From Chloroflexota bacterium (lineage in GTDB: Bacteria; Chloroflexota; Anaerolineae; Anaerolineales; VGOW01), in contig VGOW01000029.1 of NCBI GenBank assembly GCA_016875735.1, forward strand, positions 1 to 44,984: 44,984 nucleotides of DNA, given 5' to 3'. How positions within the stretch are numbered: the first letter of the stretch is position 1; each line of letters starts with the position of its first letter. Below are positions 12,394 to 35,000 of this stretch, in pieces. A program made the position numbers and the translations under genes. The notes beneath the pieces were generated by a model, which saw only the letters and a program-made list of their open reading frames with translations, was not told where the DNA came from and made no database searches.

Positions 12394-12906
12394 TCAAGAC
12401 TCTGGATCGAGATAAGTGCGCGCCAACGCATGATACTTCGCTGCGCCGATCTCTACCCACTGCGACGAACTGCCATCCAACTCTTTTTTGATCTTGGCCG
12501 GGACTCCGGCGGCTAACATTCGCGGCGGCACGCTCATCCTTTCCGCCACCACACAACCCGCGGCGATCATGCTGTGCTCGCCCACTCGCGCGCCGTTCAA
12601 CACCGCCGCGTTGATTCCGATCAGCGCCCCGCGCTCGATCACACAGCCTTCCAACACCGCGCCGTGCCCAATCGTCACGTTCTCGCCGACGAGAGTCTCG
12701 CCGCCTTCCGGCACGTGAACGGTGACATTATCCTGCACATTGCTCCCCCGCCCGATCACGATGCGCCCGTGATCGCCGCGCAGCACCGCGCCGAACCACA
12801 CACTGCTGTTCTCGGCAATTTCCACATCGCCGATCAGCACTGCCGTCGGCGCGATAAAAACATTGGCCCCGATCGTTGGAAGTTTGCCGTGATGCTCGAT
12901 GATCAC
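12394..12906 (-). CDS. Gamma-carbonic-anhydrase-like hexapeptide-repeat protein
   Basis: This 170-residue left-handed beta-helix protein belongs to the gamma-carbonic anhydrase/PaaY group. The start is GTG 12906, overlapping the TGA of the upstream gene (GTGA), which implies translational coupling. Hexapeptide repeats run from IGANVFIAPTAVLIGDVEI through SSVWFGAVLRGDHGRIVIG to VLIGINAAVLNG-like turns, ending VPAKIKKEL. The Arg and Asp of RGD and two metal-ligand histidines (NVTVH and TIGHGAV) are kept. The third ligand, normally His in GHGAxLHG, is Glu here (GHGAVLEG). The protein may therefore not be a classical zinc enzyme. PaaY homologues in phenylacetate clusters act as thioesterases on dead-end CoA products, a role that would fit this operon. 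It is the last gene of the minus-strand aromatic cluster. Confidence 0.87.
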   Translation of the reverse strand: MIIEHHGKLPTIGANVFIAPTAVLIGDVEIAENSSVWFGAVLRGDHGRIVIGRGSNVQDNVTVHVPEGGETLVGENVTIGHGAVLEGCVIERGALIGINAAVLNGARVGEHSMIAAGCVVAERMSVPPRMLAAGVPAKIKKELDGSSSQWVEIGAAKYHALARTYLDPES

Positions 12907-13892
12907 GGCAGCCCCGCCGCTTCTTTCAGCGCCCGCGCCGTGAACACGTGCGCCATCTTCTTGCGATACGACAGCACCGAATCCGTGTTGTCCATCGGCT
13001 TCGCCAAACGCGCCGCCGCCTGCGCCACCGACTCGACCGACTCGGGCGTGATCCGATTCCCGATCAGAATCGACTCGGCTTGCGGCACAACCACCGGGCG
13101 CGACCCCACCGCGCCCAACACCACTTTGGCATAAGCGCACGCGCCGTCGCCGGCCAGCCTCAGCGCAACGGCCACGCCCAGAATCGGGAAGTCGAACGAC
13201 CCGCGCCGCCGCAATTTCAGATACACACTTCGCAGTCCGTTGGCGGGCGGGATCAGAATCTCGGTGAGGATTTCGTCGGCGGCTTTGGTCAAATGATCTT
13301 TGCCGTCATCGCGATACAGTTCATCCACCGGAATCACGCGCTCGCCGCGCGGCCCGATCAGCCTCACGCTCGCCCCGAGCGCAATCATCACCGGCGCCGT
13401 GTCCGACGACGAAGCCGCCCAACAGCGCGAGCCGCCCGGCGCAACGAGGCAAATGTCGCCGTCCTTCTTCATGCAAAAGCCGATGGACTTGCGCCAGTGA
13501 TAGGTTTGATTGTAATAGTTGCATCGCGTGTCGAGGCACAGGTTGCCGCCGATGGTGCCCGTGTTGCGCAGTTGCGACGTGGACACATCGCCGGCCGCGC
13601 GAGCCAATGCCGGATACGATTGCGCGATGACGGGAGGCCGACTCACTTGCGCCAGCGTGACTCCGGCTCCGATCGTCAAACCAGAGTCGGCGTCGCCCGT
13701 CACTCGTTGGAGTTCGGCGATGGCGCGCAGACTCACGAGCGACTTCGGCTCGAACTGGCGGCGCTTCATGTTGGGAAACAGATCGGTGCCGCCAGCCACA
13801 ATCATCGCCTCCGCGCCGCGCTCGGAGAGCATGGCCACGGCTTCAACAACAGTATGGGGAGAGAGATACTCGAAGGGAGGAAGTCGAAGCAT
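12903..13892 (-). CDS. hcrB: 4-hydroxybenzoyl-CoA reductase-like, beta (FAD / [4Fe-4S]) subunit
   Basis: This is the FAD-binding subunit of a xanthine-oxidase-family molybdenum hydroxylase. Signatures are the IVAGGTDLFPNMK flavin loop (about 31-43), the TIGAGVT segment and QLRNTGTIGGNL (about 107-118). An inserted loop of about 40 residues carries Cys124, Cys140, Cys148 and Cys157. That spacing (C-x15-C-x7-C-x8-C) is the extra [4Fe-4S] cluster specific to 4-hydroxybenzoyl-CoA reductase, which reductively removes the phenolic hydroxyl to give benzoyl-CoA. The start at 13892 (MLRLPPFEYLSP) is chosen because upstream sequence is repeat DNA. The 329-residue length fits the family. It lies between the Mo subunit and the gamma-CA-like gene. 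The exact substrate is inferred, and a related dehydroxylase is possible. Confidence 0.88.
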   Translation of the reverse strand: MLRLPPFEYLSPHTVVEAVAMLSERGAEAMIVAGGTDLFPNMKRRQFEPKSLVSLRAIAELQRVTGDADSGLTIGAGVTLAQVSRPPVIAQSYPALARAAGDVSTSQLRNTGTIGGNLCLDTRCNYYNQTYHWRKSIGFCMKKDGDICLVAPGGSRCWAASSSDTAPVMIALGASVRLIGPRGERVIPVDELYRDDGKDHLTKAADEILTEILIPPANGLRSVYLKLRRRGSFDFPILGVAVALRLAGDGACAYAKVVLGAVGSRPVVVPQAESILIGNRITPESVESVAQAAARLAKPMDNTDSVLSYRKKMAHVFTARALKEAAGLP

Positions 13893-13899
13893 GGTTGTT

Positions 13900-13963
13900 C
13901 GTGGAGAGTGGAGGGTAGAGGGTGAAGCGAGTCGCCACACGCCCCACGCGTCACGCTCCACGC
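13900..13963. repeat. Dispersed intergenic repeat, copy 1 (GTGGAGCGTG...CTTCACCCTC)
   Basis: On the minus strand this spacer reads GCGTGGAGCGTG, then GTGGCGACTCGCTTCACCCT and further CTCCAC units. A closely similar string occurs at 20322-20376 on the plus strand. The last codons of the Mo-subunit gene (RGA stop) lie inside the repeat, so the element touches coding sequence. Confidence 0.6.
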
Positions 13964-16335
13964 AATTTCGGCGCTTGCGGGTGCGGCTCCACCCGCACTG
14001 GCTCGGGGAAGACAAACGAGGGCACGCCCTTCGGTCCCACGCGCGGTTCTTTGCCTTCGGCTTTGAGGGCTAATGCCTTCAACACTTTGTCGGCAGTGAT
14101 CGGCAGTTCGTCGATGCGCACGCCCACCGCATCGTACACGGCGTTGGCCACGGCGGGCGGCACGGGGAGCAGAGGCCCCTGCCCGGCCTCTTTCGCGCCG
14201 AACGGCCCTTCGGGGTCAATCGGCTCGACGAGAATCGTTTCCACTTCGGGCATATCCATCATCGTGAGACTCTTGTAATCGAGCAGTGAAGGAATCTTAT
14301 GCTGGTTGCGGCGGAAGTCTTGCTCTTCCATCAGCGCTTCGCCCAGCCCCATGTACACACTGCCTTCGGTCTGACCGATCACAAGCAGGGGATTGATCGC
14401 CCGGCCGCAATCGTGCGCGATCCAAATCTTCTCCACTTTGATTTCGCCCGTCTCCGGATCCACGTCCACTTGCGCCACGCAGGCCGAATAACTGTACGCG
14501 GGACTCGGCCCCACGCCCGAGCCTCTGAACGGCCCGGCGAGTTTGGGCGGCGTGTAACTGCCCATCGCGCCCAGCCCGCCATGTTTGGCCTCGGCCAACT
14601 GCGCGGCTTGCGCGAAGGTCAGCGAGCGCCGCTCGTCGTCAATGCAATAGATCGAGTTGTTCTTCGCCGCCAACGCTTCGACGGGCAGTTGTAGTTTTTC
14701 GGCGGCGGCTTCCATAATCAACTTCTTCAGTTTCGACGCCGCCTCAATCGCCGCGTTGCCCATCATGAACGTCACCCGGCTCGAATAGCTGCCGAGATCG
14801 ATTGGCGTGAGGTCGGTGTCGGAGACGGTGAGTTGGATGGCGTCGAGGGAGACGCCAAGCACTTCGGCCACTGTGTAGGCCAACACCGAGTTCGATCCCT
14901 GCCCGATGTCGGTGGAGCCGCACAGCACGGCCACGCCGCCGCCGCGATCAATTTTGATCTGCACCGATGTGTGCGGCATGTTGTTCCAATAAATCGGCAG
15001 GCCCGCGCCGCTGAGGTAGCTGCTGCACGCGAGCCCCACGCCTTTGCCGAAAGGCAGTTTGCGGTGCTTGTCGTTGAAACCGGAGGCGGCGGCCACTTTA
15101 TCAATGCACTCGCCGAGCGCGCACGAAGTGATGCGCAAGTGATTCACCGTGTATGAGTTTTCGTCCACCACAAACTTGCGCCGGATGTCCACCGGGCTGA
15201 TGCCGATGGCTTCGGCAATTTTGTCGAGCTGTATTTCCATGCCGAAGCGCGGCTGGGGCGTGCCGTGCCCGCGCTTGGGGCCGCACGCCGGTTTGTTAGT
15301 GAAGGCGCGCATCCCTTCGAATTTATAAGTCGGAACTTTGTAAGTGACGGGTTGCAGCGCGCCGGTGTAATACGTGCTGGCGACTCCGTAGGATCCGTAT
15401 GCGCCGCCATCGAGAAACGTTTTGAAGTGCATGGCCGTGATCGATCCGTCTTTGCGAACTCCGGTTTTGGCCCACATGAGGACGGGGTGGCGGCCCCGGT
15501 GCGCGTAGAAGACTTCTTCGCGGGTGAGGGCGATCTTCACCGGGCGGCCGGTGATCATCGAAAGTTTGGCCGCCGCCACTTCATGCGGCAGTGGATCGCT
15601 TTTGCCGCCGAACCCGCCGCCCACCGGGGTGGCGATGATGCGCACACGGCTCGGCGCAATGGCGAGCGCTTTGGACAGCGCGCGATGAACATAGTGCGGG
15701 CACTGAGTGGAAGACCAAAGGGTAAGCTTGCCGTCGGCGGTGTAGTGAGCCACTACCGCGTGTTCCTCCATCGGCAGGTGCGTGTTGCCTTGATAGAAGA
15801 ACGTGTCCTCGCGGACGTAGTCGGCGGCGGCGAAACCGGACTCGGTGTCCCCGAATTCCAACGCCACCATTTTGTGGACGTTGCCCTGATCGCCGTAATC
15901 TTGAATCGGCTCGCCCTCTTTGGTCAGCACATCTTCGACCGACATGAACGCGGGCAGTTCTTCGTATTCAACGTCGATCAGATCGATGGCGCGTTCTGCC
16001 GTCTCCTCGTCCACGGCGGCCACCGCCGCAATCGGGTCGCCGACGAAACGGCCCTTGTCTCCGGCCAGCCCGGTTTCATCCTGACTCACGGGCAGGTTGC
16101 CATACTTCACCGGAAGATCGGCGCCGGTGATGATGGCGACAACGCCGGGCAGAGCCTGCGCCCGCGCCGTGCCGATGTGTTTGATCCGCGCATGAGGATA
16201 ATGACAGCCGAGTATTTTGGCGTGCAGCATTCGCGGCATTGCCAGATCGTCGGCGTATTTTGTTTCGCCGGTCACTTTGCCCAGCGCGTCCACTTTGGGC
16301 AGGGGTTTGCCGATAAGAGTGAGTTCGTCAGTCAT
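13951..16335 (-). CDS. hcrA: 4-hydroxybenzoyl-CoA reductase-like, alpha (molybdopterin) subunit
   Basis: This is the large molybdopterin-binding subunit of a xanthine-oxidase-family enzyme, 794 residues. The N-terminal a/b hammerhead domain begins IGKPLPKVDALGKVTGETKYADD. The Mo-binding domains contain TPVGGGFGGKSD, the GSTDIGQGSNSVLAYTVAEVLG region and the C-terminal GPFGAKEAGQGP with Glu716 as the expected catalytic base. Together with the iron-sulfur subunit upstream and the [4Fe-4S]-bearing FAD subunit downstream it forms a three-gene unit of the (alpha-beta-gamma)2 type. The subunit order iron-sulfur, Mo, FAD is unbroken, with spacers of about 60 nt. It needs molybdopterin cytosine dinucleotide or similar; moaC and moaDE are in this window, but no mobA/mocA or xdhC-like maturation gene is seen. 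Confidence 0.88.
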   Translation of the reverse strand: MTDELTLIGKPLPKVDALGKVTGETKYADDLAMPRMLHAKILGCHYPHARIKHIGTARAQALPGVVAIITGADLPVKYGNLPVSQDETGLAGDKGRFVGDPIAAVAAVDEETAERAIDLIDVEYEELPAFMSVEDVLTKEGEPIQDYGDQGNVHKMVALEFGDTESGFAAADYVREDTFFYQGNTHLPMEEHAVVAHYTADGKLTLWSSTQCPHYVHRALSKALAIAPSRVRIIATPVGGGFGGKSDPLPHEVAAAKLSMITGRPVKIALTREEVFYAHRGRHPVLMWAKTGVRKDGSITAMHFKTFLDGGAYGSYGVASTYYTGALQPVTYKVPTYKFEGMRAFTNKPACGPKRGHGTPQPRFGMEIQLDKIAEAIGISPVDIRRKFVVDENSYTVNHLRITSCALGECIDKVAAASGFNDKHRKLPFGKGVGLACSSYLSGAGLPIYWNNMPHTSVQIKIDRGGGVAVLCGSTDIGQGSNSVLAYTVAEVLGVSLDAIQLTVSDTDLTPIDLGSYSSRVTFMMGNAAIEAASKLKKLIMEAAAEKLQLPVEALAAKNNSIYCIDDERRSLTFAQAAQLAEAKHGGLGAMGSYTPPKLAGPFRGSGVGPSPAYSYSACVAQVDVDPETGEIKVEKIWIAHDCGRAINPLLVIGQTEGSVYMGLGEALMEEQDFRRNQHKIPSLLDYKSLTMMDMPEVETILVEPIDPEGPFGAKEAGQGPLLPVPPAVANAVYDAVGVRIDELPITADKVLKALALKAEGKEPRVGPKGVPSFVFPEPVRVEPHPQAPKLRGA

Positions 16336-16396
16336 GGGATTCAGTAGCCAGTGATCAGTAATTGGTGATTGGTGATCGCTATCCGCGATCCGTCAA

Positions 16397-16861
16397 TCAC
16401 CGCCTTTCCGCCGCCAACTCCACCGCTTCGATGATTTTGCTATAGCCCGTGCAGCGGCACAGGTTGCCGGAAAGGGCTTGGCGAATGTCGTCGCGGGCGG
16501 GATGGGGATCGTGATCGAGCAGGGCTTTGGCCGAGATGAGCATGCCCGGCGTGCAGTAGCCGCACTGCGCCGCGCTCAATTCGGCGAAGGCGGTTTGGAG
16601 CGGGTGCGGCGTGCCATTGTGAGCCAGCCCTTCCACCGTGAGAATCTCGCGGCCCTGAATCTCGATGGGCAAAGTGAGGCACGACAGAGTCGGCTCGCCA
16701 TCCACCAACACGGTGCACGCGCCGCACTCGCCCAACTCACAGCCGTGCTTCGTGCCAGTGAGATTCAAATCCTCGCGCAGCACTTCGAGCAAAGTTTTGT
16801 GAACCGGAACGTAGGCTTCGTAGTCTTCGCCGTTCACTCGTAACTTGATGAGTTGTTTCAT
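16397..16861 (-). CDS. hcrC: 4-hydroxybenzoyl-CoA reductase-like, gamma (2x[2Fe-2S]) subunit
   Basis: This 154-residue electron-transfer subunit has two [2Fe-2S] clusters. The plant-ferredoxin-type cluster uses Cys41, Cys46, Cys49 and Cys61 (CELGECGAC and, later, C61). The alpha-helical cluster uses Cys100, Cys103, Cys135 and Cys137 (CGYC and CRC). It passes electrons between the FAD subunit and the molybdenum centre. The start is ATG 16861 (MKQLIKLRVNGEDYE); the upstream extension is spacer palindrome. It is the first gene of the three-gene molybdenum enzyme unit and follows an enoyl-CoA hydratase gene by 75 nt, a gap that holds a strong GC-rich inverted repeat. Confidence 0.92.
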   Translation of the reverse strand: MKQLIKLRVNGEDYEAYVPVHKTLLEVLREDLNLTGTKHGCELGECGACTVLVDGEPTLSCLTLPIEIQGREILTVEGLAHNGTPHPLQTAFAELSAAQCGYCTPGMLISAKALLDHDPHPARDDIRQALSGNLCRCTGYSKIIEAVELAAERR

Positions 16862-16875
16862 ACTTGTTCTCCTCA

Positions 16876-16918
16876 CCCCTCCCCCTCTCCTGAACAACGC
16901 TCAGGAGAGGGGGAGGGG
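16876..16918. repeat. Perfect 18-bp GC-rich inverted repeat inside the operon
   Basis: Arms 16876-16893 and 16901-16918 are exact complements (CCCCTCCCCCTCTCCTGA), with a 7-nt loop. There is no T-run on the minus strand, so it is more likely an attenuating or processing hairpin, or a REP-type element, than a full terminator. It lies between the enoyl-CoA hydratase and hcrC genes. Confidence 0.75.
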
Positions 16919-16936: not shown

Positions 16937-17719
16937 TCATTTACCGGAGAACTGCGGCTTGCGCTTTTCGCGGAAGGCGCGCAAGCCCTCTTTGTGATCT
17001 TCCGTGCCGAGCAGGATGCTCTGCGCCAAACCTTCCATCATGATGCCAGTCGTCTGATCCACATTAGCAACGTTGTTCAGAATCTTTTTCGCCAGCCCGA
17101 GCGATTGCGGCGCGCGCTTGAGCAGCATCTCGGCGTATTCGCGGGTCTCGGCCATCAGCCGGTCGGCGGGAACGACTCGATTGACGAGGCCGATCCCCTG
17201 CGCTTCTTTCGCTGGAAGCATCGTTCCGGCGAAGATCAACTCTTTGGCTTTGGCTACGCCGATCAATCGCGCGAAGCGGGCGCATCCGCCGATGCCGGGA
17301 ATGAGGCCAATGTAATTTTCGCGGAAGCCGAGCGATGCTTCTTCAGATGCGAAACGGACATCGCACGCCAGCGCCAGTTCGAGTCCGCCGCCCGTCGCCG
17401 CGCCGTTGATTGCCGCAACCACTGGCTTCTCCAGCGTTTCGAGATCTTCGAAGAATTTGATCAGCCTACGGCTGTTGGCGCGGAAGTCGGGCGTGCGCCA
17501 GCCTTTCTCGAAGTGAGCGATGTCGCCGCCCGATGAGAACGCCCGCCCCGCTCCGGTGAAGATGATCACCCGCACCGCCTCGTCGAAGACCAGAGTCTCC
17601 GTGAGCGCGGTGAAGTCGTGGCGCATCTCCATGTTGATCGCGTTGAGGTGATCGGGGCGGTTGAGGATGACGGTGGCAATGCCGCCGCTCAACTCGTATT
17701 GCAGGGTCTTGAATTCCAT
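16937..17719 (-). CDS. Enoyl-CoA hydratase/isomerase family protein (PaaG/PaaF-like)
   Basis: This 260-residue crotonase-fold enzyme starts at 17719, one base after the upstream stop codon. The oxyanion-hole segments are present (AFSSGGDIAHF and INGAATGGGLELALACD). The two acidic catalytic positions of enoyl-CoA hydratases are Glu114 (GGGLELA) and Glu134 (GFRENYIG), both retained. In a phenylacetyl-CoA-type pathway such proteins either isomerise the ring epoxide to an oxepin (PaaG) or hydrate unsaturated acyl-CoAs (PaaF), and sequence reading cannot tell which. A second paralogue lies at 20377-21159 in the same operon, so the pair may divide these roles. Confidence 0.9.
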   Translation of the reverse strand: MEFKTLQYELSGGIATVILNRPDHLNAINMEMRHDFTALTETLVFDEAVRVIIFTGAGRAFSSGGDIAHFEKGWRTPDFRANSRRLIKFFEDLETLEKPVVAAINGAATGGGLELALACDVRFASEEASLGFRENYIGLIPGIGGCARFARLIGVAKAKELIFAGTMLPAKEAQGIGLVNRVVPADRLMAETREYAEMLLKRAPQSLGLAKKILNNVANVDQTTGIMMEGLAQSILLGTEDHKEGLRAFREKRKPQFSGK

Positions 17720-17720
17720 A

Positions 17721-17924
17721 TCAGTCTTCCTCAACCCACCGCACCACGTCGAACACGGTGCGACAATTGCGGCAATAGTATTGTGAGGCAAGCAAGAATT
17801 GCCCAAAGAGCGAAAAGAACTCGGTCTCGGTTGAGCCGCAAAACGGGCAGGCCACCTCCTCATCCGCCCCCCCTGAATCTTGAGGAGTTTGAGATTTGAG
17901 ATTGGAGATTGCTTCATTGTTCAT
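17721..17924 (-). CDS. PaaD C-terminal zinc-ribbon as a separate small protein
   Basis: A 67-residue protein carries CPFCGSTETEFFSLFG followed by YYCRNCRTVFDVV, a four-cysteine zinc ribbon (C-x2-C about 20 residues before C-x2-C). This is the C-terminal domain of canonical PaaD, the assembly factor for phenylacetyl-CoA epoxidase, where it normally follows a DUF59/MIP18 domain in one chain. The DUF59 part is a separate gene at 18967-19377, with paaB-like and paaC genes in between. The frame overlaps the end of paaC by 11 nt. The first 19 or so residues (NNEAISNLKSQTPQDS) are encoded by spacer-like DNA and may be dispensable. The next gene starts one base after the stop. Confidence 0.8.
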   Translation of the reverse strand: MNNEAISNLKSQTPQDSGGADEEVACPFCGSTETEFFSLFGQFLLASQYYCRNCRTVFDVVRWVEED

Positions 17925-18561
17925 TGGCTTCCATCCCGCGCTCGTTCAACAACGATTTCATTTCCACAATCCACCGCGCGCGGAGCGAGTCGGCGCTTTC
18001 GGAGAGCGTGCCGTCGGCGGTCAATGTTCCATTGTAAGCCGAGGCCAGCCATTGCGCCGTCGGCGCCCACACCCGATTCACGGCGGCTTGCGCGGCGGCG
18101 CGCGTCCCAGCGTTGGCGGCCAATCGCTTGAGCCAGCCTTCGGCGTACAGGCGATGAAATTTTTCTTCCTGCAAAATTTTGCCCGCGCGCTGGCGAAGCG
18201 GCTCGTAGCGTGACTCGCGCGCGGCTTCGAACACCAATGAAAGGGCGCGGTCGAGCAACGCGCACGCGGCCACGAACTCGGCCCAACTCGCAAACGGCGC
18301 GTCGAGCAACGAAAGGTTGAAGCGCCGATCTCGTTTCTCTTCGCGGGTGTAGGCTTCGGGCGCGTCGGGCATCGAACTGAGCGCGGCGTACAAACTGCGC
18401 GCGTGCCCCAACTCATCCTGCGTCATCGCCGCCGCCGCCACCGCCGCTTCGAGCGTCGGCGCCCCGTTCGTCCATTCGGAGAAGCGGCGGCCCAGCGCAT
18501 ATTTGTTGTCGGCCAAGCCGATGATCAAATCGGCCAACGCATTTTGAGTGACTTGAGACAC
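17914..18561 (-). CDS. paaC: 1,2-phenylacetyl-CoA epoxidase structural subunit PaaC
   Basis: This 215-residue four-helix ferritin-like protein is the non-catalytic partner of PaaA in the phenylacetyl-CoA monooxygenase. The first half-motif is QDELGHAR (Glu50, His53) and the second is QEEKFHRLYAEGW (Glu132, Glu133, His136). PaaC homologues keep traces of these ligands without a functional di-iron site. The N-terminus (NALADLIIGLADNKYALGRRFSEW) and the QWLASAYNGTL stretch are typical of the family. Genes on both sides abut or overlap, so it is translated as part of the paa unit. It could be mistaken for a second catalytic subunit, but the pairing with the PaaA-like gene at 19381 argues for PaaC. 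Confidence 0.88.
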   Translation of the reverse strand: MSQVTQNALADLIIGLADNKYALGRRFSEWTNGAPTLEAAVAAAAMTQDELGHARSLYAALSSMPDAPEAYTREEKRDRRFNLSLLDAPFASWAEFVAACALLDRALSLVFEAARESRYEPLRQRAGKILQEEKFHRLYAEGWLKRLAANAGTRAAAQAAVNRVWAPTAQWLASAYNGTLTADGTLSESADSLRARWIVEMKSLLNERGMEANEQ

Positions 18562-18566
18562 GGACT

Positions 18567-18752
18567 CTACTCCATGGGGATGACGCGAACGACCGACGAC
18601 TCGGGGGCGGCGACCATTTCGAGCCAGCCCTCGCCGAATCGTTCGCGGGCGATCCGACTCAACTCATCGGGCCCACTCTCAACCGTGATCGCGCCGAGAT
18701 ACTCCAGCGGCTGTTGATATTCTTTTCGCCCGAAGATGAGAAACGTGTTCAT
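18567..18752 (-). CDS. paaB: Short PaaB-like protein 2
   Basis: A 61-residue protein (MNTFLIFGRKEYQQPLEYLGAITVESGPDELSR...) starts at the ATG overlapping the previous stop (TGATG); a GTG three bases earlier is also possible. The pattern of a beta strand with FGRKxxxxPLxYLGxI, a helix containing ARERFG, and a final strand ending in VRVIP resembles the PaaB subunit. PaaB stabilises phenylacetyl-CoA epoxidase and is usually about 95 residues, so this version is markedly short. It is the second of two adjacent PaaB-like genes. Assignment rests mainly on position and the strand/helix pattern. Confidence 0.68.
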   Translation of the reverse strand: MNTFLIFGRKEYQQPLEYLGAITVESGPDELSRIARERFGEGWLEMVAAPESSVVRVIPME

Positions 18753-18970
18753 CACGGCGCCTCGACGATGTGAATGACTGCCCGGCGCGGCACAGCGATC
18801 ATTTCACTCCACGTCCATTCTTGATACACGGTGAAAGCATACACCCGCGCCAGTTCGACGTCCGGCGCGACGACGTTGCCCACATATCGCAATGGGTCTT
18901 CTGGTTTGATTTTGGCGAATACGTCGTACACGTCGCCCGCTGGTGATTCAGTCTTGCGGCTCTGAGTCAT
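18752..18970 (-). CDS. paaB: PaaB-like protein 1
   Basis: The 72-residue product begins MTQSRKTESPAGDVYDVFAK at an ATG overlapping the stop of the DUF59 gene by 4 nt. The core PLRYVGNVVAPDVELARVYAFTVYQEWTWSEMIAVPRR fits the PaaB fold, in which a short helix bearing an aromatic-rich segment is followed by a strand with a VP motif. PaaB is an obligatory small subunit of the phenylacetyl-CoA epoxidase complex. It is shorter than proteobacterial PaaB and is followed immediately by a second, more diverged copy. Confidence 0.75.
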   Translation of the reverse strand: MTQSRKTESPAGDVYDVFAKIKPEDPLRYVGNVVAPDVELARVYAFTVYQEWTWSEMIAVPRRAVIHIVEAP

Positions 18971-19377
18971 ATGGCTACCCCGAATCGCCGCAGACGCTCT
19001 TTGCCTTTTTCGGTCAACCGGTTTCTCGTCCACGGCGGGTCCCAAACAATTTCGATCTGCACACTGTCCACGCCCGGCTCGCGCAACAGCCGCGCGCGAA
19101 TATCCTCGACGATGAAATCCATGCACGGGCAGCCCATCGCCGTGAAGGTGAGCATGACGAACACGGCGCCCCCGTCACAGCGGAGTCCGTAGATCAACCC
19201 CATGTCCACCACACTGATCGGAAATTCGGGATCGGCCACATCATCGAGCGCGGCCCACAGCGGCAGATCGGCCGGCAGGGCAGCGGCGCGCGCAATGTGG
19301 GCGCGATTCACATGCTCGTTGCCCACCGCTTCATTGTTCACGGCAAAGCCGTCCTGTAGGATTGTTTCATTGTTCAT
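18967..19377 (-). CDS. paaD: PaaD-like DUF59/MIP18 protein lacking its zinc ribbon
   Basis: A 136-residue protein whose residues about 38-136 are a DUF59 (MIP18/SufT) domain: LDDVADPEFPISVVDMGLIYGL, the Cys-containing TFTAMGCPCMDFIVEDI, then VWDPPWTRNRLTEKGKERLRRFG. PaaD proteins contain this domain and are needed to assemble the epoxidase, probably at its metal centre. The usual C-terminal zinc ribbon is absent; a separate gene at 17721-17924 encodes it. The first 30 or so residues are partly encoded by CATTGTTCATT-type repeat DNA, so the true start may be internal. The gap to paaA upstream is 3 nt. Confidence 0.85.
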   Translation of the reverse strand: MNNETILQDGFAVNNEAVGNEHVNRAHIARAAALPADLPLWAALDDVADPEFPISVVDMGLIYGLRCDGGAVFVMLTFTAMGCPCMDFIVEDIRARLLREPGVDSVQIEIVWDPPWTRNRLTEKGKERLRRFGVAI

Positions 19378-19380
19378 CGT

Positions 19381-20316
19381 TCATTGCTTCATCGCCGCCA
19401 ACTCGCGGTGTCCGCGCTGAACATTGCCCACGAACTGAGCATTCATCGGGCCGCGCGCTTTCCATCGTTTCAATACCTCGTCCCACGAGATCGGCCCCTT
19501 CTCGAACAGCCATCGCTTGTTTTTGGCATCGAACTCGCAGGGGAAGGGGAAATCGAAAACATATTGGCCCTGCCCTTTGTCGAAGTGAACCGGCAGACGC
19601 AAGCCCAATTCCTCGCAGAGTGGCACGCCGGTACTCATCCAAATTTGCCGCAGGGTATTGTTGGTGCTGCCTTTGAAACCGTAGTCGAGCTGCTCGGTGT
19701 GCTTCTTGAGATCATCCGGCAAGCCGAACCACTCCATCGTGAGAGGGAACATCCAATCAATGGCTCGCTGAAGTTTCTCGCGCCCGCTTGGCTCCTCGAC
19801 GATCTTTCGCATCCATGTTTCGCCGTGCCGCAAGTGGAAGTTCTCTTCGCGATCCACTTTGGTGAGCGCGCGCTTCCACGGCCCGAAGGTGCTGTGCTTG
19901 AACACATCGCCGAGCAACACGTAACCAGCGCGATCATAGAAGGCGTTGGCGACGACGAGCTCCACCCACGTTTCGAGGGACACGTCGAATGCGTAGGGGT
20001 ATTTGAACTCTTCCGGCCTGCGCTCGTAGATCAACTCTTCTTTGTTCACGCCCAAATCTTCGAGCAAACGATAAGCGATATGAGCGTGCCCTAACTCATC
20101 CTGAATGATGCCCATCGCCGAAACGTAAGCGTTGATCGACGGGGCATCTTGCGCGGCATAATAGTACGCGGGGGCGCTGATCAACTCCGTGTCCGCCGAC
20201 ACGGTGAGGATGCGCTTGATGCCTTCAAGATACACCGGGCTCATCTGATCGACGGTTTCCATCAGGCGGCCTTCGGCGAGGCGGGTTTTGACGTCGGCTT
20301 CGGTGGCAGGGATCAT
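19381..20316 (-). CDS. paaA: 1,2-phenylacetyl-CoA epoxidase catalytic subunit PaaA
   Basis: PaaA uses a di-iron site and O2 to epoxidise the aromatic ring of phenylacetyl-CoA, the key step of the hybrid aerobic pathway. The 311-residue product matches the family length. Likely iron ligands are Glu44, Glu74 and His77 (QDELGHAH), Glu119 (WVELVVAN), and Glu158 and His161 (REENFHLRHGE). The AMGIIQDELGHA and AFYDRAGYVLLGD stretches are typical. The start at 20316 leaves a 60-nt spacer to the upstream hydratase gene that contains a dispersed repeat. The dedicated reductase PaaE, the ligase PaaK and the ring-opening PaaZ are not in this window, so electrons must come from elsewhere. Confidence 0.9.
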   Translation of the reverse strand: MIPATEADVKTRLAEGRLMETVDQMSPVYLEGIKRILTVSADTELISAPAYYYAAQDAPSINAYVSAMGIIQDELGHAHIAYRLLEDLGVNKEELIYERRPEEFKYPYAFDVSLETWVELVVANAFYDRAGYVLLGDVFKHSTFGPWKRALTKVDREENFHLRHGETWMRKIVEEPSGREKLQRAIDWMFPLTMEWFGLPDDLKKHTEQLDYGFKGSTNNTLRQIWMSTGVPLCEELGLRLPVHFDKGQGQYVFDFPFPCEFDAKNKRWLFEKGPISWDEVLKRWKARGPMNAQFVGNVQRGHRELAAMKQ

Positions 20317-20376: not shown

Positions 20377-21159
20377 TTACTTACCTCGATACACGGGCGC
20401 TCGTTTCTCGGCGAAAGCGGTGAGGCCTTCCTTTGCATCTTCGGTGTCGAACAGCGGCTCGATCAATTTCCGTTCGAGCGCGAGGCCGTCGGTCAGAGTC
20501 ATGGCGACGCCTTGATACACGCATTGCTTGATTCGGGCAATCGCCAGACTCGCTCCGGCGGCCACTTTCCGCGCATAGGCTTCCGTCTCTTCCATCAGTT
20601 TATCCGCCGGAAAGACGCGGTTGATGATGCCGAGTCGGAGCGCATCATCGGGAGCCGCCGCCTCGCCAGTGAGCATCAGTTCCAATGCTTTATTCGCGCC
20701 GATGAGTCGCGGCAGGCGCTGTGTGCCGCCGTTGCCCGGCAGTAACCCCAGAGTCACTTCGGGCAGGCCCATTCGATATTTGCCTTCGGCGGCGAAACGG
20801 AGGTCGCAAGCCAGAGCCATTTCCAGCCCGCCACCCATCGCGTGGCCGTTGATCGCGGCGACGTACACTTTGTCGCTGGAGGCCATTTTGTCGAGCGCGC
20901 GGTGCGCGGTGCGAATCATTTCCATGTTGGCGGCCGTGGTGTTTGCCAAAAACGCTTTGATGTCCGCGCCGCCGGAAAAGAATTTCTCCGACGCGCTTTT
21001 GAGGATCACCACTTTCACTCCGCTCTCGGCGTTGGCCGCATCCACCGCGGCATCCAGATCGCGCATGAAGCCGATCTCGTAGCTGTTGGCCGGAGGGCGA
21101 TTGAGAGTGATGTAGCCGATAACGTCTGACTTCGAAAAAGTGACAACGGGCTCAGCCAT
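20377..21159 (-). CDS. Enoyl-CoA hydratase (crotonase family)
   Basis: This 260-residue crotonase-fold enzyme has both catalytic glutamates of true enoyl-CoA hydratases: Glu113 (MGGGLEMALACD) and Glu134 (GLPEVTLGLLPGNGG). The acyl-CoA oxyanion loops (FFSGGADIKAF, AAINGHAMGG) and the closing segment (TEDAKEGLTAFAEKR) are canonical. In this operon it most likely acts in the beta-oxidation-like steps after ring opening. It lies 45 nt after the aldehyde dehydrogenase gene; that spacer is low-complexity DNA (repeats of GAGTTTGGAGTTTGAG). Confidence 0.93.
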   Translation of the reverse strand: MAEPVVTFSKSDVIGYITLNRPPANSYEIGFMRDLDAAVDAANAESGVKVVILKSASEKFFSGGADIKAFLANTTAANMEMIRTAHRALDKMASSDKVYVAAINGHAMGGGLEMALACDLRFAAEGKYRMGLPEVTLGLLPGNGGTQRLPRLIGANKALELMLTGEAAAPDDALRLGIINRVFPADKLMEETEAYARKVAAGASLAIARIKQCVYQGVAMTLTDGLALERKLIEPLFDTEDAKEGLTAFAEKRAPVYRGK

Positions 21160-21204: not shown

Positions 21205-22671
21205 TTACTCCCAGTCCAACCCGCCAAACACCGCGCCTTTATTTTCGAGATAGTAGTCCACCGCTTCGGGGCCATGTTCGTGCCCGATGCCCGAAGCCTT
21301 CGTGCCGCCAAATGGCAGTTCGTCATAGCCGTAATGAATCTGATTCACCCACGTGACCCCGGCTTGAATCTCGCGCACCGCGCGATTGGCCCACGACATG
21401 TTTTGAGTCCAAATGGATGAGCCGAGCCCCCACTGGCTGTTGTTGGCTTTTTGAATCGCCTCGTCGAGCGATTTCACTTTCCACACCGGCAGCACCGGCC
21501 CGAACACTTCCTCGGTGGCGAGTTTGCTATCTTCGGGAACGTCGGCCACAAGCGCCGGTTCGAAGAAGTGGCCGCTCGCCAGCGCGGGATCATCGGGGCG
21601 TTTGCCGCCGACGAGAATCTTCGCGCCTTTCGCAACCGCGTCGGCCAACTGCCCTTCGATCTCTTCACGCTGAAACGCGGTGTGCAGCGGCCCCATTCGA
21701 ATGAACGGCTTCTCCGGTTTCGTCGCCCCGTCGCCCACGCGATACCCGGCTACCTTCTCCGCCAAACTTTCCACAAACTTGTCGTACACCGACTCGAAAA
21801 CATACAGCCGCTTCACCGCGAGGCACTGCTGTCCGGCATTCCAATATCGGCCCACCACCACGCCGCTCACCGCGCGTTTCACATCGGCGTCTGGGCAAAT
21901 GATGCACGGGTCGGAGCCGCCGAGTTCGAGCGTCACGCGTTTGAAATCCGGCCCGGCCAATTGCATCACCCGCCGCCCCGTCTCCGATGATCCGGTGAGC
22001 GCAACGCGGCGCACAGCAGGGTGCGTGATCAAATGTTCGCCGACGACGCTTCCCGATCCGGTGAGGCATTGCAACACACCGGGCGGGAGTCCGGCTTCGT
22101 TGAGCAGGCCGATGATCTTGAGTGTGGCGAGCGGAGTCGTCTTCGCCGGTTTGAGGATGATGGCGTTTCCGGCGATGAGCGCCGGGCCCACTTTGGTGCC
22201 CATGAGGGTGAGCGGAAAATTCCACGGGACGATTCCGGCGCACACCCCCACCGGGCGTTTGAGGACGAGGCCGTAGGCATGTTTGCCGAGCGCGGGCGGC
22301 AGTGGAACTTGCGCGCCGCGAATCTTGCTCGCCATCCCGGCATAAAATTCCATGCCGTGCAAAAAGTGATGCAGTTCGCCCGACGCCTCGAACAGCGGCT
22401 TACCTTGCTCGGCGGTGAGCAGTGCAGCGATCTCTTTCGCCTGCGCTTCGACGGCCTGAATGCCTTTGCGGAGGAGCGCGGCGCGATCATCGGGCGAGGT
22501 GTCGGCCCATGCGGCGGAGGCGGCCTGCGCCGCCTTCACGGCGGCGTCCACGTCCTCTCTGCCCGCCAATGGAACAGAGTCCACCACGTTCCCGTTGGCC
22601 GGGCTCTTCACCTCGTACGTCTCACCGCTCGACGCATCAGCCCACTGCCCGTTGACAAACATCTTCGCCAT
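21205..22671 (-). CDS. NAD(P)-dependent aldehyde dehydrogenase
   Basis: This 488-residue aldehyde dehydrogenase superfamily protein starts at ATG 22671, which has GAGGAG upstream. The cofactor and active-site elements are complete: PWNFPLTL (about 149-156), LTGSSETGRR (about 225-234), the general base Glu249 in LELGGSDP, the nucleophile Cys283 in GQQCLAVKR, and EEVFGPVLPV near the C-terminus. It would oxidise an aldehyde to an acid. In an aromatic degradation operon, phenylacetaldehyde or the semialdehyde formed on ring cleavage are natural candidates, though the sequence alone does not identify the substrate. It is the first structural gene after the TetR regulator, 16 nt downstream. Confidence 0.93.
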   Translation of the reverse strand: MAKMFVNGQWADASSGETYEVKSPANGNVVDSVPLAGREDVDAAVKAAQAASAAWADTSPDDRAALLRKGIQAVEAQAKEIAALLTAEQGKPLFEASGELHHFLHGMEFYAGMASKIRGAQVPLPPALGKHAYGLVLKRPVGVCAGIVPWNFPLTLMGTKVGPALIAGNAIILKPAKTTPLATLKIIGLLNEAGLPPGVLQCLTGSGSVVGEHLITHPAVRRVALTGSSETGRRVMQLAGPDFKRVTLELGGSDPCIICPDADVKRAVSGVVVGRYWNAGQQCLAVKRLYVFESVYDKFVESLAEKVAGYRVGDGATKPEKPFIRMGPLHTAFQREEIEGQLADAVAKGAKILVGGKRPDDPALASGHFFEPALVADVPEDSKLATEEVFGPVLPVWKVKSLDEAIQKANNSQWGLGSSIWTQNMSWANRAVREIQAGVTWVNQIHYGYDELPFGGTKASGIGHEHGPEAVDYYLENKGAVFGGLDWE

Positions 22672-22687
22672 ATCGAATGACTCCTCG

Positions 22688-23275
22688 TTATTGTGTATTG
22701 CCCGCACCGCTGAAAAACAAATCCACCACGTAATCGGCCATCGCCGCGCGATCGCTAAAAATCTTCTGCGCGTAATCGGTGATCATCACTTCGACCAGCG
22801 CCACGTGCATCCACGCCAGCAAACGCGGGTCGGCGTCGGCCAACTCGCCGTCGCGTATTCCGTCGCGGACAATTTTCTCCACCTGCTCCGGCAATGCAGA
22901 TTGATACGCGCGCACGAGGCGCTCGCGGGTGGGGTTGCGAAAAATGTTGATGTCCCGCCGGACGAGTTTGATCAGCTCGCGTTTTTGAGGCGGCAGCTGC
23001 AAAAAACTCTCCACCACTCGCTTCATGCGTTCGCGGCAACTGCCCGCGCTCTCCGCCGCCGACTTGAATATGGCTTGCTTCTCTTTCAAATCGGCGTGCA
23101 TCATCTCAAGGTACAACGACTCCTTGCTAGGAAAATGGTGATACAACGCGCCTTTGGTCACGCCGGCCGCATCGGCAATCTCAGTCATCGTCACGTCGGC
23201 ATAATTCTTGTCGAGGAAGAGAGTCTGAGCCGCGCTCAAAATGCTGGCAATCGTCGCTGTGGATTTTGCGTACAT
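22688..23275 (-). CDS. TetR/AcrR-family transcriptional regulator
   Basis: The 195-residue protein has an N-terminal helix-turn-helix (about 10-55: ILSAAQTLFLDKNYADVTMTEIADAAGVTKGALYHHFPSKE in pieces) and a helical ligand-binding C-terminus. It is the promoter-proximal gene of the aromatic operon, like PaaR in some phenylacetate clusters, where an aryl-CoA relieves repression. A clear promoter and an overlapping inverted repeat lie just upstream, which indicates autoregulation together with control of the 13 genes that follow. The effector is unknown. Confidence 0.92.
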   Translation of the reverse strand: MYAKSTATIASILSAAQTLFLDKNYADVTMTEIADAAGVTKGALYHHFPSKESLYLEMMHADLKEKQAIFKSAAESAGSCRERMKRVVESFLQLPPQKRELIKLVRRDINIFRNPTRERLVRAYQSALPEQVEKIVRDGIRDGELADADPRLLAWMHVALVEVMITDYAQKIFSDRAAMADYVVDLFFSGAGNTQ

Positions 23276-32045: not shown

Positions 32046-35000
32046 CTACTTCTTCTTGCCCTTCTTCGGCGCGGCCTCCGACTCGGCTTCCTTCTCTGCC
32101 GGTGTATCGCCGTTGTCGGGCGCTTCGATGGTCACACTGGCAAAGTTGGCCGGGTTGGCTTCGGCCACCTCCGCCATTTGCGCGGCCATGCCCGCCTGCA
32201 TGGCCATGAGTTTCTCCAACTCGGCCATCGCTTCATTGTGCGCCGCTGCGGCCTCTTGCACCGCCGCCGGAGCGGGAGCCGCCGCGCCTTCGCCCGCCGC
32301 CGCCGCGCCCTCGCCTTTGATCGCCGCATCGAGCGCGGCCAAATCTTTGGCGTGATAACTCCACCGCGCCTTCAGCGGATACCGCGCCCGGATGTCGCCG
32401 ATGAGGCCATCGAGTTGCTGTTCGGCCGAGAGGCCGTTCTTGCCTTCCACATACGGCGTGGCGATCTGCACCATCGAGGCAGTGACGGCTTTGATGAGGA
32501 AAGCGCGGCCCGGCGGCAGCTCTTTGTTCACCGAGAAACTGCCGCGCACGCCCATAAAGCGCACCGCCTCGAAATCGTTGAGCACCAGTGTGTACCGCGC
32601 CGACTCGGTTCGCTTGCGCAGTTCATCCATGCTGTTACGCATGATGTTCATCGAGCCGGAGATGACGAGGTGCATGTTCTTGCCCTTGCCCACCTCCGAG
32701 AGGCCCACGAGTCCCGCGCCGCCTTTGTTGAACGATTCGGCGTCGTCGTAGTGATCGATGATGACGAAGATCGATCTGGCCTGATTGTTCTGCGCCATGA
32801 ACACATCCGATTTCCCTTGCAAGCGCATGATCACTTCTTCATCGTATTCAGCGCGAAGCCGTTTCACCGTCTCGTCCATCTCTTTGGCGTTGGTCACGGT
32901 GGCCAAAACGTGCGGTAGTTTGTCGAGCGAGTTGTCGGCGCTGGCCCCGAAGTTGAAGAAGCGCCGCGACGAGTCCGATGGATCGACGAGCACCATCGCC
33001 ACTTTGTCGGGCGGGTAGCAATGCGCCAGCGCCAGCACGAGCGAACGCACGGTGGTCGTCTTGCCGGTGACGGGCGGCCCCAGCACCAGCCAGTGCGGGC
33101 CTTTGGCCCCGAACTCGATCATCGTCGGTTCGCGGTCGAGATCGTTGAGGCCCACCGGCACGGCTTTGTTGTCGATGCCCTGCCCCAGCGGCGGCAGAAC
33201 GCTGGCAACGTCGATGAACTTCGCCAGCGGCTCCACCGGCTTCGGGCGTTTGGTTCTCAGCGGCGGCGTCGCGCTTTCGAGCGCCGCCCACGCCCGCGAC
33301 ATACGGTTGGACAGTTCGCGGTAGTAATCGGTGTCGCCATCCCCAATGGGAATGGCGGTGTGGAATTCGAGCGGCTGAGGCCGTTCGTCCACCATTTCCA
33401 CCACCAGCCCGCGCCCGGGTTCGTCGTTGAACGGCACCCATCCGCGCCCGACGATGGTGCTGTAATCGGAAGCGTCGGGCAGGGTGAACGTGAGTCGCTG
33501 TGTGAGGAGATTGAACAGTTTGGTGGGAACGTCGTTGGTGAGTGTCGCCGTCACCACGAAGTACACGCCGAAGGATCGGCCATCGCGGACGAGAGCGATG
33601 AGATCGCCGAGATAGCGTTCGTAGGTTTCCTTGAATTCGGAGACGTTGTCCACCACGACGATGACCGGCGGGAAGGGCGAGTCGGGATTCTTGGCGTTGT
33701 AATCGGCCAGCGAGTCGAAGGCCTGAGTCTTCTGCTGGCGATCATCGATGATGGTGCGGATCATGCGGATGAGCCGCTCGACGCGCTCCTCTTCGCTCGT
33801 ATCCACAATACCTGCAACATGCGGCAGGTTGCGCAGGGCTTTGAGGCCGCCGCGCCCGAAGTCGAGGGCGAAGATGTGCAGATCGGCGGGCGAGCGCTGT
33901 GCGGCCAGCGCGATGAGCAGTGATTTGAGAAAGGTGGATTTGCCGCGCCCGCTCGCGCCGAAGATGACAATCGGATCGCCCGACGGGTCAATGTTGAGGA
34001 TGCGCTGTTCGGCGAGGAAGGTATTGTCCACAATGCCGATGGGCACGCCGAGGGCAACGGGCTTCGTCCAATCCTGCGCCTGCCACAGCGGCTTCGCATC
34101 GGCGTTATCGATCCACGCGGCCACCGTCGAGTTGATGATCGTCTCTTTGCCCAATCGCCCGTTTTGGATGTACTCGGAGTTGACCAACTTGTTGAGCGGC
34201 AGTTGTTCGGGCAGTGGATCGGGCCACGGCTTGAACTGCTTGGGGATTTTCTGCCGCCGGGACTCCGCCGCCAACACACCCACCAGCCAGCCGAGCAGTG
34301 AGCGCGGCGGATCGTTTTGCTTGTCGAGCGCTTCGAGAATCTCATCAATGGAATAAACGGGATCGGGCTTCGCTTCATCGTACGGCGCGCCCGACCACGC
34401 GGCTTGCACTTCCGAGAGGCCGCCGCCGCCTACCTGAATATAGCCGCGTCCGCCGATGGCCGGCAGTGTGGCGGCATCGGGGCGGCTGAGCATTTCTTTG
34501 CTGTCGTCCGCCGTTTCCACGCGCAAACAGATTCTGAACTTCATGTTGGCGCGCATCTGATCCGAGACGACGCCGGAGGGTCGCTGAGTGGCGAGGATGA
34601 GCGACACGCCGAATGAACGACCCAGCCGAGTGATGCTCTCGAACTTGGCTTTGTATTCGGGGTTCTGCGTAATCATCTCCGCAAACTCATCCACGATGAT
34701 GAAGAGATGCGGGAAGGTGTTGGGGAACGGCGAGCCGGGCTTGAGAGTCGGAATCACTTTCTTCCGATAGTCAACGAGATCGGCCACCCCAGCCTTGGCC
34801 AAAATATCCGACCGCCGATTCATCTCGGCGTTGATGGCAATGAAGATGCGTTCGACGGCGTTGCCCTGCAAGTTGGTGGCGATGTCCACGCAGTGCGGCA
34901 GTTTGCGGAACGGCTCGACTGTAGGGCCGCCTTTGTAATCCACCAGCACGAAGTTGATGATGCGCGGATCATATTTGATGGCGAGGGCGCTGATCAACGT

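What the first reader, a model, noticed from the sequence alone, without database searches (positions are those of the whole stretch)
17721..19377. PaaD split into two genes, with the zinc ribbon moved past paaC
The DUF59 half lies at 18967-19377 and the four-cysteine ribbon at 17721-17924; paaB-like and paaC genes lie between. In proteobacterial PaaD the two domains are one chain. The order paaA-DUF59-paaB-paaB-paaC-ribbon shows domain separation within one operon, so the ribbon must act in trans.
Basis: partly seen in the sequence, partly recalled or inferred. Interest (0 to 1): 0.55.

Follow-up and report, generated by a model that had tools for sequence, protein, structure and literature searches.

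The report
Two-gene PaaD in Paa-like oxygenase operon
A helper protein that is one chain in well-studied bacteria is made from two separate small genes in a large, overlooked branch of a ring-attacking oxygenase, and the two-gene form is probably the older one.

Summary
On the minus strand the operon reads paaA - DUF59 - paaB1 - paaB2 - paaC - ribbon - enoyl-CoA hydratase, and DUF59 and ribbon are separate genes. This is not a local break. It defines a branch of Paa-like oxygenases with order A-D-B-C-R. Of 85 fetched loci (80 from the genome scan, 5 plasmid), 73 have separate DUF59 and ribbon, none is fused, and 12 end too early. In a survey of 400 genomes of the window's phylum, 63 carry the split form, 49 the fused form, 2 both. 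The window's genome is one of the two: it also has a fused PaaD in a canonical operon. Separate genes were already known from haloarchaea (NF041868, NF041869), so the arrangement as such is not new. PaaA and DUF59 trees favour fusion as the derived state, so 'split' and 'moved' are probably the wrong direction. The split-type ribbon lacks a cysteine that all fused and haloarchaeal ribbons examined have. No PaaE reductase lies near 136 split loci. I infer a two-piece maturation factor for the diiron oxygenase. New variant of a known kind.

The parts
17721..17924 (-). stand-alone PaaD-type zinc ribbon (67 aa; Cys 26, 29, 51, 54)
   Evidence: PF23451 3.7e-15, cut-off passed; NF041869 34.3 bits, below its cut-off of 100; three-strand ribbon in AlphaFold2 model, mean pLDDT 76.5
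18967..19377 (-). stand-alone DUF59 / MIP18-like protein, the other half of PaaD
   Evidence: PF01883 6.5e-15; NF041868 105.1 bits, below its cut-off of 180
19381..20316 (-). PaaA-like catalytic diiron subunit of the split-type branch
   Evidence: PF05138 3.1e-54; TIGR02156 108 bits, below its cut-off of 280; six ligand positions kept in the family
18752..18970 (-). PaaB-like bridging protein 1
   Evidence: PF06243 0.029; profile-profile match to canonical PaaB, probability 94.5
18567..18755 (-). PaaB-like bridging protein 2
   Evidence: no Pfam hit; profile match to PaaB 64.5 and to PaaB1 98.7
17914..18561 (-). PaaC-like subunit
   Evidence: PF05138 2.7e-40; TIGR02158 111.6 bits, cut-off 133
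16937..17719 (-). enoyl-CoA hydratase/isomerase family, directly downstream
   Evidence: PF00378 1.3e-59; such a gene lies within 6 kb in 74 of 136 split loci, duplicates included
20377..21159 (-). second enoyl-CoA hydratase family gene, upstream of paaA
   Evidence: PF00378 2e-59
21205..22674 (-). aldehyde dehydrogenase family
   Evidence: PF00171 1.5e-158
22688..23275 (-). TetR-family regulator at the head of the operon
   Evidence: PF00440 2.7e-18
16397..16897 (-). 2Fe-2S subunit of a 4-hydroxybenzoyl-CoA-reductase-like enzyme
   Evidence: TIGR03193 7.8e-57, below cut-off; NF041020 scores slightly higher
13951..16335 (-). molybdenum subunit, 4-hydroxybenzoyl-CoA-reductase-like
   Evidence: TIGR03194 1.8e-261 (869.8 bits; cut-off 994.6)
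12903..13925 (-). FAD subunit, 4-hydroxybenzoyl-CoA-reductase-like
   Evidence: TIGR03195 3.1e-91 (305.9 bits; cut-off 404.6)
12394..12900 (-). hexapeptide-repeat protein, gamma carbonic anhydrase / PaaY-like
   Evidence: PF00132 1.2e-20 for 12394-12900; NF050158 2e-44 and TIGR02287 3.7e-42 for 12394-13140

Best explanation
The DUF59 protein and the zinc ribbon are the two halves of PaaD made as separate proteins. They belong to a distinct, widespread branch of Paa-like CoA-ester oxygenases (order A-D-B-C-R). I propose that they work as a two-piece on-site maturation factor: the DUF59 protein delivers or places iron in the diiron oxygenase (PaaA, possibly PaaC) and the ribbon docks the pair on the oxygenase. 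The two genes are probably the older state, and the one-chain PaaD of proteobacteria and others arose by fusion. Shown by sequence: separate genes, conservation, branch, gene order, absence of a nearby PaaE. Inferred: metal delivery, client, docking, and direction of change.
For: Separate DUF59 and ribbon in 73 of 85 fetched loci (80 from one genome scan, 5 plasmid), 0 fused, 12 cut by contig ends; 72 of the 73 are split-branch and one (L136) is haloarchaeal A-B-C-D-R. 64 split loci in 63 of 117 survey genomes over the cut-off; 61 of 63 have no fused copy. Split PaaA is one branch (98/92, 33 rows); split, haloarchaeal and fused DUF59 are each one branch. No PaaE-type reductase within 6 kb of 136 split loci (107 unique) against 9 of 23 fused loci, and none over the cut-off in the window's genome, so PaaE is unlikely to be the necessary client here. 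Single in-frame joins PaaA-DUF59 (L115) and PaaC-ribbon (L107). Partial correlation of divergence, ribbon-DUF59 0.23 and ribbon-PaaC 0.36, 0 of 500 permutations each. Published: E. coli PaaD is needed in vivo, not in vitro, and is SufT-like (PMC4498308, passages; PMC9493321, passages).
Against: No experiment and no complex prediction. A reductase could lie elsewhere in these genomes. The joins in L115 and L107 are single cases in drafts. DUF59 co-varies more with PaaC (0.48) than with PaaA (0.10, reached by 37 of 500 permutations). The ribbon lacks the fifth cysteine of fused PaaD, so its role may differ. One fused row (L123) falls outside the fused PaaA branch.
Confidence: 0.58

Rival explanations
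1. The ribbon is a lasting structural subunit of the oxygenase (bound to PaaC), not a maturation factor.
For: It lies next to paaC in nearly all loci; PaaC-ribbon in one frame in L107; ribbon-PaaC co-variation is the strongest of the ribbon's (0.36); fifth Cys missing.
Against: Fused PaaD was not detected with PaaABC in published pull-downs (PMC9493321, passage) and was not needed in vitro (PMC4498308, passage).
Confidence: 0.2
2. The ribbon is a rubredoxin-like iron protein that replaces the missing PaaE reductase as electron donor.
For: PaaE is absent near 136 of 136 split loci and over the cut-off in the window's genome; four-Cys site.
Against: Fused systems that do have PaaE keep the ribbon too. 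The closest solved folds found are NrdR zinc ribbons (best Z 5.1, 1.9 A over 46 residues), on a modest model.
Confidence: 0.1
3. A recent fission of an ordinary PaaD in this lineage.
For: Fused PaaD is the textbook form; a fused copy exists in the same genome.
Against: The window's PaaA and DUF59 sit inside branches made only of split rows from many phyla; 0 fused among the 85 fetched loci.
Confidence: 0.1
4. The two genes are redundant leftovers and the fused PaaD on contig C112 does the work.
For: Full-length PaaD is present in the genome.
Against: 61 of 63 survey genomes with the split form have no fused copy found; four Cys kept in 133 of 136 split ribbons.
Confidence: 0.02

Closest known systems
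PaaD of the canonical 1,2-phenylacetyl-CoA epoxidase operon (TIGR02159)
   Same: DUF59 plus PF23451 ribbon, encoded with PaaA, PaaB, PaaC; four ribbon Cys and the DUF59 GCP motif
   Different: One chain there, two genes here; order A-B-C-D there, A-D-B-C-R here; fused ribbons have a fifth invariant Cys, split-type ribbons do not
Haloarchaeal PaaD and 'PaaE' (NF041868, NF041869)
   Same: Separate DUF59 and ribbon genes beside paaABC (L136, L221, L223, L224)
   Different: Order A-B-C-D-R; PaaA groups with the canonical branch; fifth Cys present; window proteins score 105 against a cut-off of 180 and 34 against 100. The name PaaE collides with the bacterial reductase PaaE
SufT / CIA-type DUF59 proteins (TIGR02945, TIGR03406)
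   Same: Stand-alone DUF59, metal-cluster assembly
   Different: Here the gene lies in an oxygenase operon with a ribbon; window DUF59 scores 75 against a cut-off of 143 and 83 against 203
Zinc-ribbon partner VdcD of a UbiD-type decarboxylase (7ae7)
   Same: Small separate ribbon serving an aromatic-metabolism enzyme; weak fold match (Z 3.2, 2.3 A over 39 residues)
   Different: Different enzyme; the Z is too low to claim kinship

Membership tests
PaaD (TIGR02159) | DUF59 and zinc ribbon in one polypeptide | tested here: not met
   Two genes 1 kb apart with paaB1, paaB2 and paaC between
PaaD (TIGR02159) | score above the equivalog cut-off of 108.15 | tested here: not met
   73.3 bits (DUF59) and 34.6 bits (ribbon)
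PaaD zinc ribbon domain (PF23451) | score above Pfam's cut-off of 27 | tested here: met
   55.7 bits
DUF59 / FeS_assembly_P (PF01883) | score above Pfam's cut-off of 23.5 | tested here: met
   55.6 bits
Haloarchaeal PaaD/PaaE pair (NF041868, NF041869) | scores above 180 and 100 | tested here: not met
   105.1 and 34.3 bits
Haloarchaeal PaaD/PaaE pair (NF041868, NF041869) | fifth ribbon Cys after the FG/KG turn | tested here: not met
   Present in 4 of 4 haloarchaeal and 52 of 52 fused ribbons, 0 of 105 unique split ribbons
1,2-phenylacetyl-CoA epoxidase PaaA (TIGR02156) | score above the equivalog cut-off of 280 | tested here: not met
   108.4 bits
PaaA/PaaC diiron oxygenase family (PF05138) | family match and diiron ligands in PaaA | tested here: met
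   184.4 bits; each ligand position kept in 129-130 of 131 split PaaA rows
1,2-phenylacetyl-CoA epoxidase | acts on phenylacetyl-CoA | not testable with these tools
   No assay; neighbours only suggest a CoA-ester or aromatic substrate
Rubredoxin-like electron carrier | binds and cycles iron | not testable with these tools
   Metal identity needs protein

The most novel reading that the evidence does not exclude
A separate, unnamed class of Paa-like diiron oxygenase (A-D-B-B-C-R) that works without the PaaE reductase, has in many members a PaaC that keeps a full set of diiron ligands, acts on a CoA-ester other than phenylacetyl-CoA, and is matured in place by a two-piece chaperone whose DUF59 part sits on PaaA and whose ribbon sits on PaaC. 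This is the arrangement from which the familiar one-chain PaaD later arose.
Probability: 0.28. Interest if true: 0.65.

Novelty: new variant of a known kind. Interest (0 to 1): 0.45.

Why it matters
PaaD is described as essential in vivo with no known function. A natural two-gene form lets each half be removed alone, and the nearby absence of PaaE narrows the candidate client to the diiron oxygenase. It also marks a widespread second branch of Paa-like oxygenases, with a member in Thermus thermophilus, a cultured thermophile.

Tried and rejected
Chance or frame artefact: rejected by conservation in many phyla. Recent fission and redundancy with the fused PaaD: disfavoured. PaaE hidden in the split loci: none by two reductase queries within 6 kb at E 1e-12. 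Solved structure of the ribbon: no significant match by sequence; fused PaaD matches only DUF59 structures. Fold search of the ribbon gave weak zinc-ribbon matches, no E below 0.001; no rubredoxin appears among the rows shown, which is not evidence against one. Thermus DUF59 is related to TTHB138 (2cu6) but not the same protein.

False positive dropped: L043 (G028) is a ribbon without Paa genes. L044 (G297), L131 and L132 gave no Paa map. Weak hits below the cut-off of PF23451 were not fetched. Loci of the survey and of the genome scan overlap: 136 split loci are 107 unique by DUF59 plus ribbon. The neighbour tally uses only loci with wide flanks: 19 of the 48 fused survey loci plus 4 plasmid records.

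Literature: searches showed no paper on the split. Seen of papers: PMC13186573 abstract and passages, passages of PMC4498308, PMC2653477, PMC11241148, PMC6562870, PMC9493321, search listings otherwise. Subscription journals are mostly not held. Complex prediction was not possible: the fold tool takes one chain.

Full report
WHAT IS THERE. On the minus strand the window holds a tight catabolic operon: TetR, aldehyde dehydrogenase, enoyl-CoA hydratase, PaaA, DUF59, PaaB1, PaaB2, PaaC, zinc ribbon, enoyl-CoA hydratase, then three subunits like 4-hydroxybenzoyl-CoA reductase and a PaaY-like hexapeptide protein. The ribbon start overlaps the paaC stop by 11 bases and its stop lies one base before the next start.

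THE SAME GENOME ALSO HAS A ONE-CHAIN PAAD. Four PF01883 matches occur in the genome. One, on contig C112, is a 159-aa PaaD with both domains at the end of a canonical order A-B-C-D; there PaaB carries two repeats in one chain, whereas the window has two PaaB genes. A third ribbon hit, on C17, is the tail of that same gene: the two contig ends overlap by 153 bases at 99% identity. So the genome has two Paa-type systems.

THE SPLIT IS A FIXED TRAIT OF A BRANCH. In 400 genomes of the window's phylum, 138 had a PF23451 match and 117 passed the cut-off. Mapping the loci gave 64 split, 48 fused, 5 ribbon only, 1 with both, 1 other, of 119; by genome, 63 split, 49 fused, of which 2 have both, and 7 unresolved, of 117. 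The gene order differs as well: A-D-B-C-R against A-B-C-DR. A scan of genome contigs with the split-type PaaA family kept the best 80 of 333 relatives; together with five plasmid regions, 70 of 85 have the ribbon after PaaC, 2 before PaaA, 1 is the haloarchaeal A-B-C-D-R order, 12 stop at a contig end, and none is fused. By record titles the hosts include Chloroflexota, KSB1, Armatimonadota, Gemmatimonadota, Acidobacteriota (Pyrinomonas) and Actinomycetota (Rubrobacter, Solirubrobacterales); the plasmids add Thermus thermophilus, two haloarchaea and an Agrobacterium. The Thermus locus has the same companions as the window: two enoyl-CoA hydratases, TetR, aldehyde dehydrogenase.

WHICH STATE IS OLDER. 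A PaaA tree rooted on PaaC has two deep branches: the split one (33 rows, support 98/92) and one with fused rows plus four haloarchaeal rows with separate genes in order A-B-C-D-R. Without one long-branched fused row (L123) the fused rows are one branch (100/96); with it, holding them together is not rejected (p 0.199). In the DUF59 tree, split, haloarchaeal and fused rows are each one branch. One fusion is therefore the simplest history. The evidence is good but not final; the DUF59 alignment has only 101 columns.

THE RIBBON IS A DISTINCT SUBFAMILY. All 52 fused and 4 haloarchaeal ribbons have a fifth cysteine after the FG/KG turn; none of 105 unique split-type ribbons has it. Four Cys are kept in 133 of 136 split ribbons and the DUF59 GCP motif in 131 of 136. 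The AlphaFold2 model is a three-strand ribbon of moderate confidence; the nearest solved folds are NrdR ribbons, Z 5.1 at best.

WHAT IT PROBABLY DOES. PaaD is reported as needed in vivo but not in vitro, and SufT-like, with iron insertion into PaaE or PaaA suggested (PMC4498308, passages), or maturation of the complex (PMC9493321, passages). Here the PaaE reductase is absent within 6 kb of all 136 split loci, against 9 of 23 fused loci that have it, and no PaaE passes the cut-off in the window's genome. DUF59 and ribbon persist without it, so I infer that the client is the diiron oxygenase. Two single draft cases join PaaA with DUF59 (L115) and PaaC with the ribbon (L107) in one frame, and another joins the ribbon to an enoyl-CoA hydratase (L067). 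Among 73 dereplicated loci of 131, ribbon divergence tracks PaaC (partial r 0.36) and DUF59 (0.23) but not PaaA (-0.06); DUF59 tracks PaaC (0.48) more than PaaA (0.10). That fits docking near PaaC better than near PaaA, and so tells partly against the simplest form of my model.

SUBSTRATE. Unknown. The companions (two enoyl-CoA hydratases, aldehyde dehydrogenase, a 4-hydroxybenzoyl-CoA-reductase-like enzyme) point to aromatic CoA-ester breakdown. Reductase-like genes (the 4-hydroxybenzoyl-CoA type) occur near 10 split loci, 8 after removing duplicates, and near none of the 23 fused loci. A canonical operon in the same genome suggests that this one has another substrate.

KNOWN OR NEW. NCBIfam already models separate haloarchaeal DUF59 (NF041868) and ribbon (NF041869, named PaaE), so separate genes as such are on record. 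The A-D-B-C-R branch, its spread, its four-Cys ribbon and its lack of a nearby PaaE were not found in the papers searched; a 2026 survey of the pathway does not contain the words zinc, split or Chloroflex.

Noticed in passing
17914-18561 and split-type PaaC in related loci: PaaC keeps all six diiron-ligand positions in 92 of 131 split rows, 4 of 4 haloarchaeal and 9 of 20 fused rows, so PaaC may itself bind a diiron site in many lineages.
   Followed up: partly
12903-16897: 4-hydroxybenzoyl-CoA-reductase-like three-subunit enzyme in the same operon as a Paa-like oxygenase; also near other split loci (8 unique with the window), never near the 23 fused loci tested.
   Followed up: partly
L115 9159-10787, L107 7632-8309, L067 7926-9050: Single open frames joining PaaA with DUF59, PaaC with the ribbon, and the ribbon with an enoyl-CoA hydratase.
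   Followed up: partly
L133 11332-11538, L134 10234-10467, L135 10145-10459: The ribbon open frame has no listed gene in the three annotated split-type plasmid records; the plasmid gene tables are incomplete, so this may be a gap of the table.
   Followed up: no
NF041869 / L136 8283-8450: The haloarchaeal ribbon is named PaaE, the same name as the unrelated flavin/iron-sulfur reductase of bacterial paa operons.
   Followed up: yes
32046-40760: A very long open frame of 2904 aa on the minus strand, not examined.
   Followed up: no
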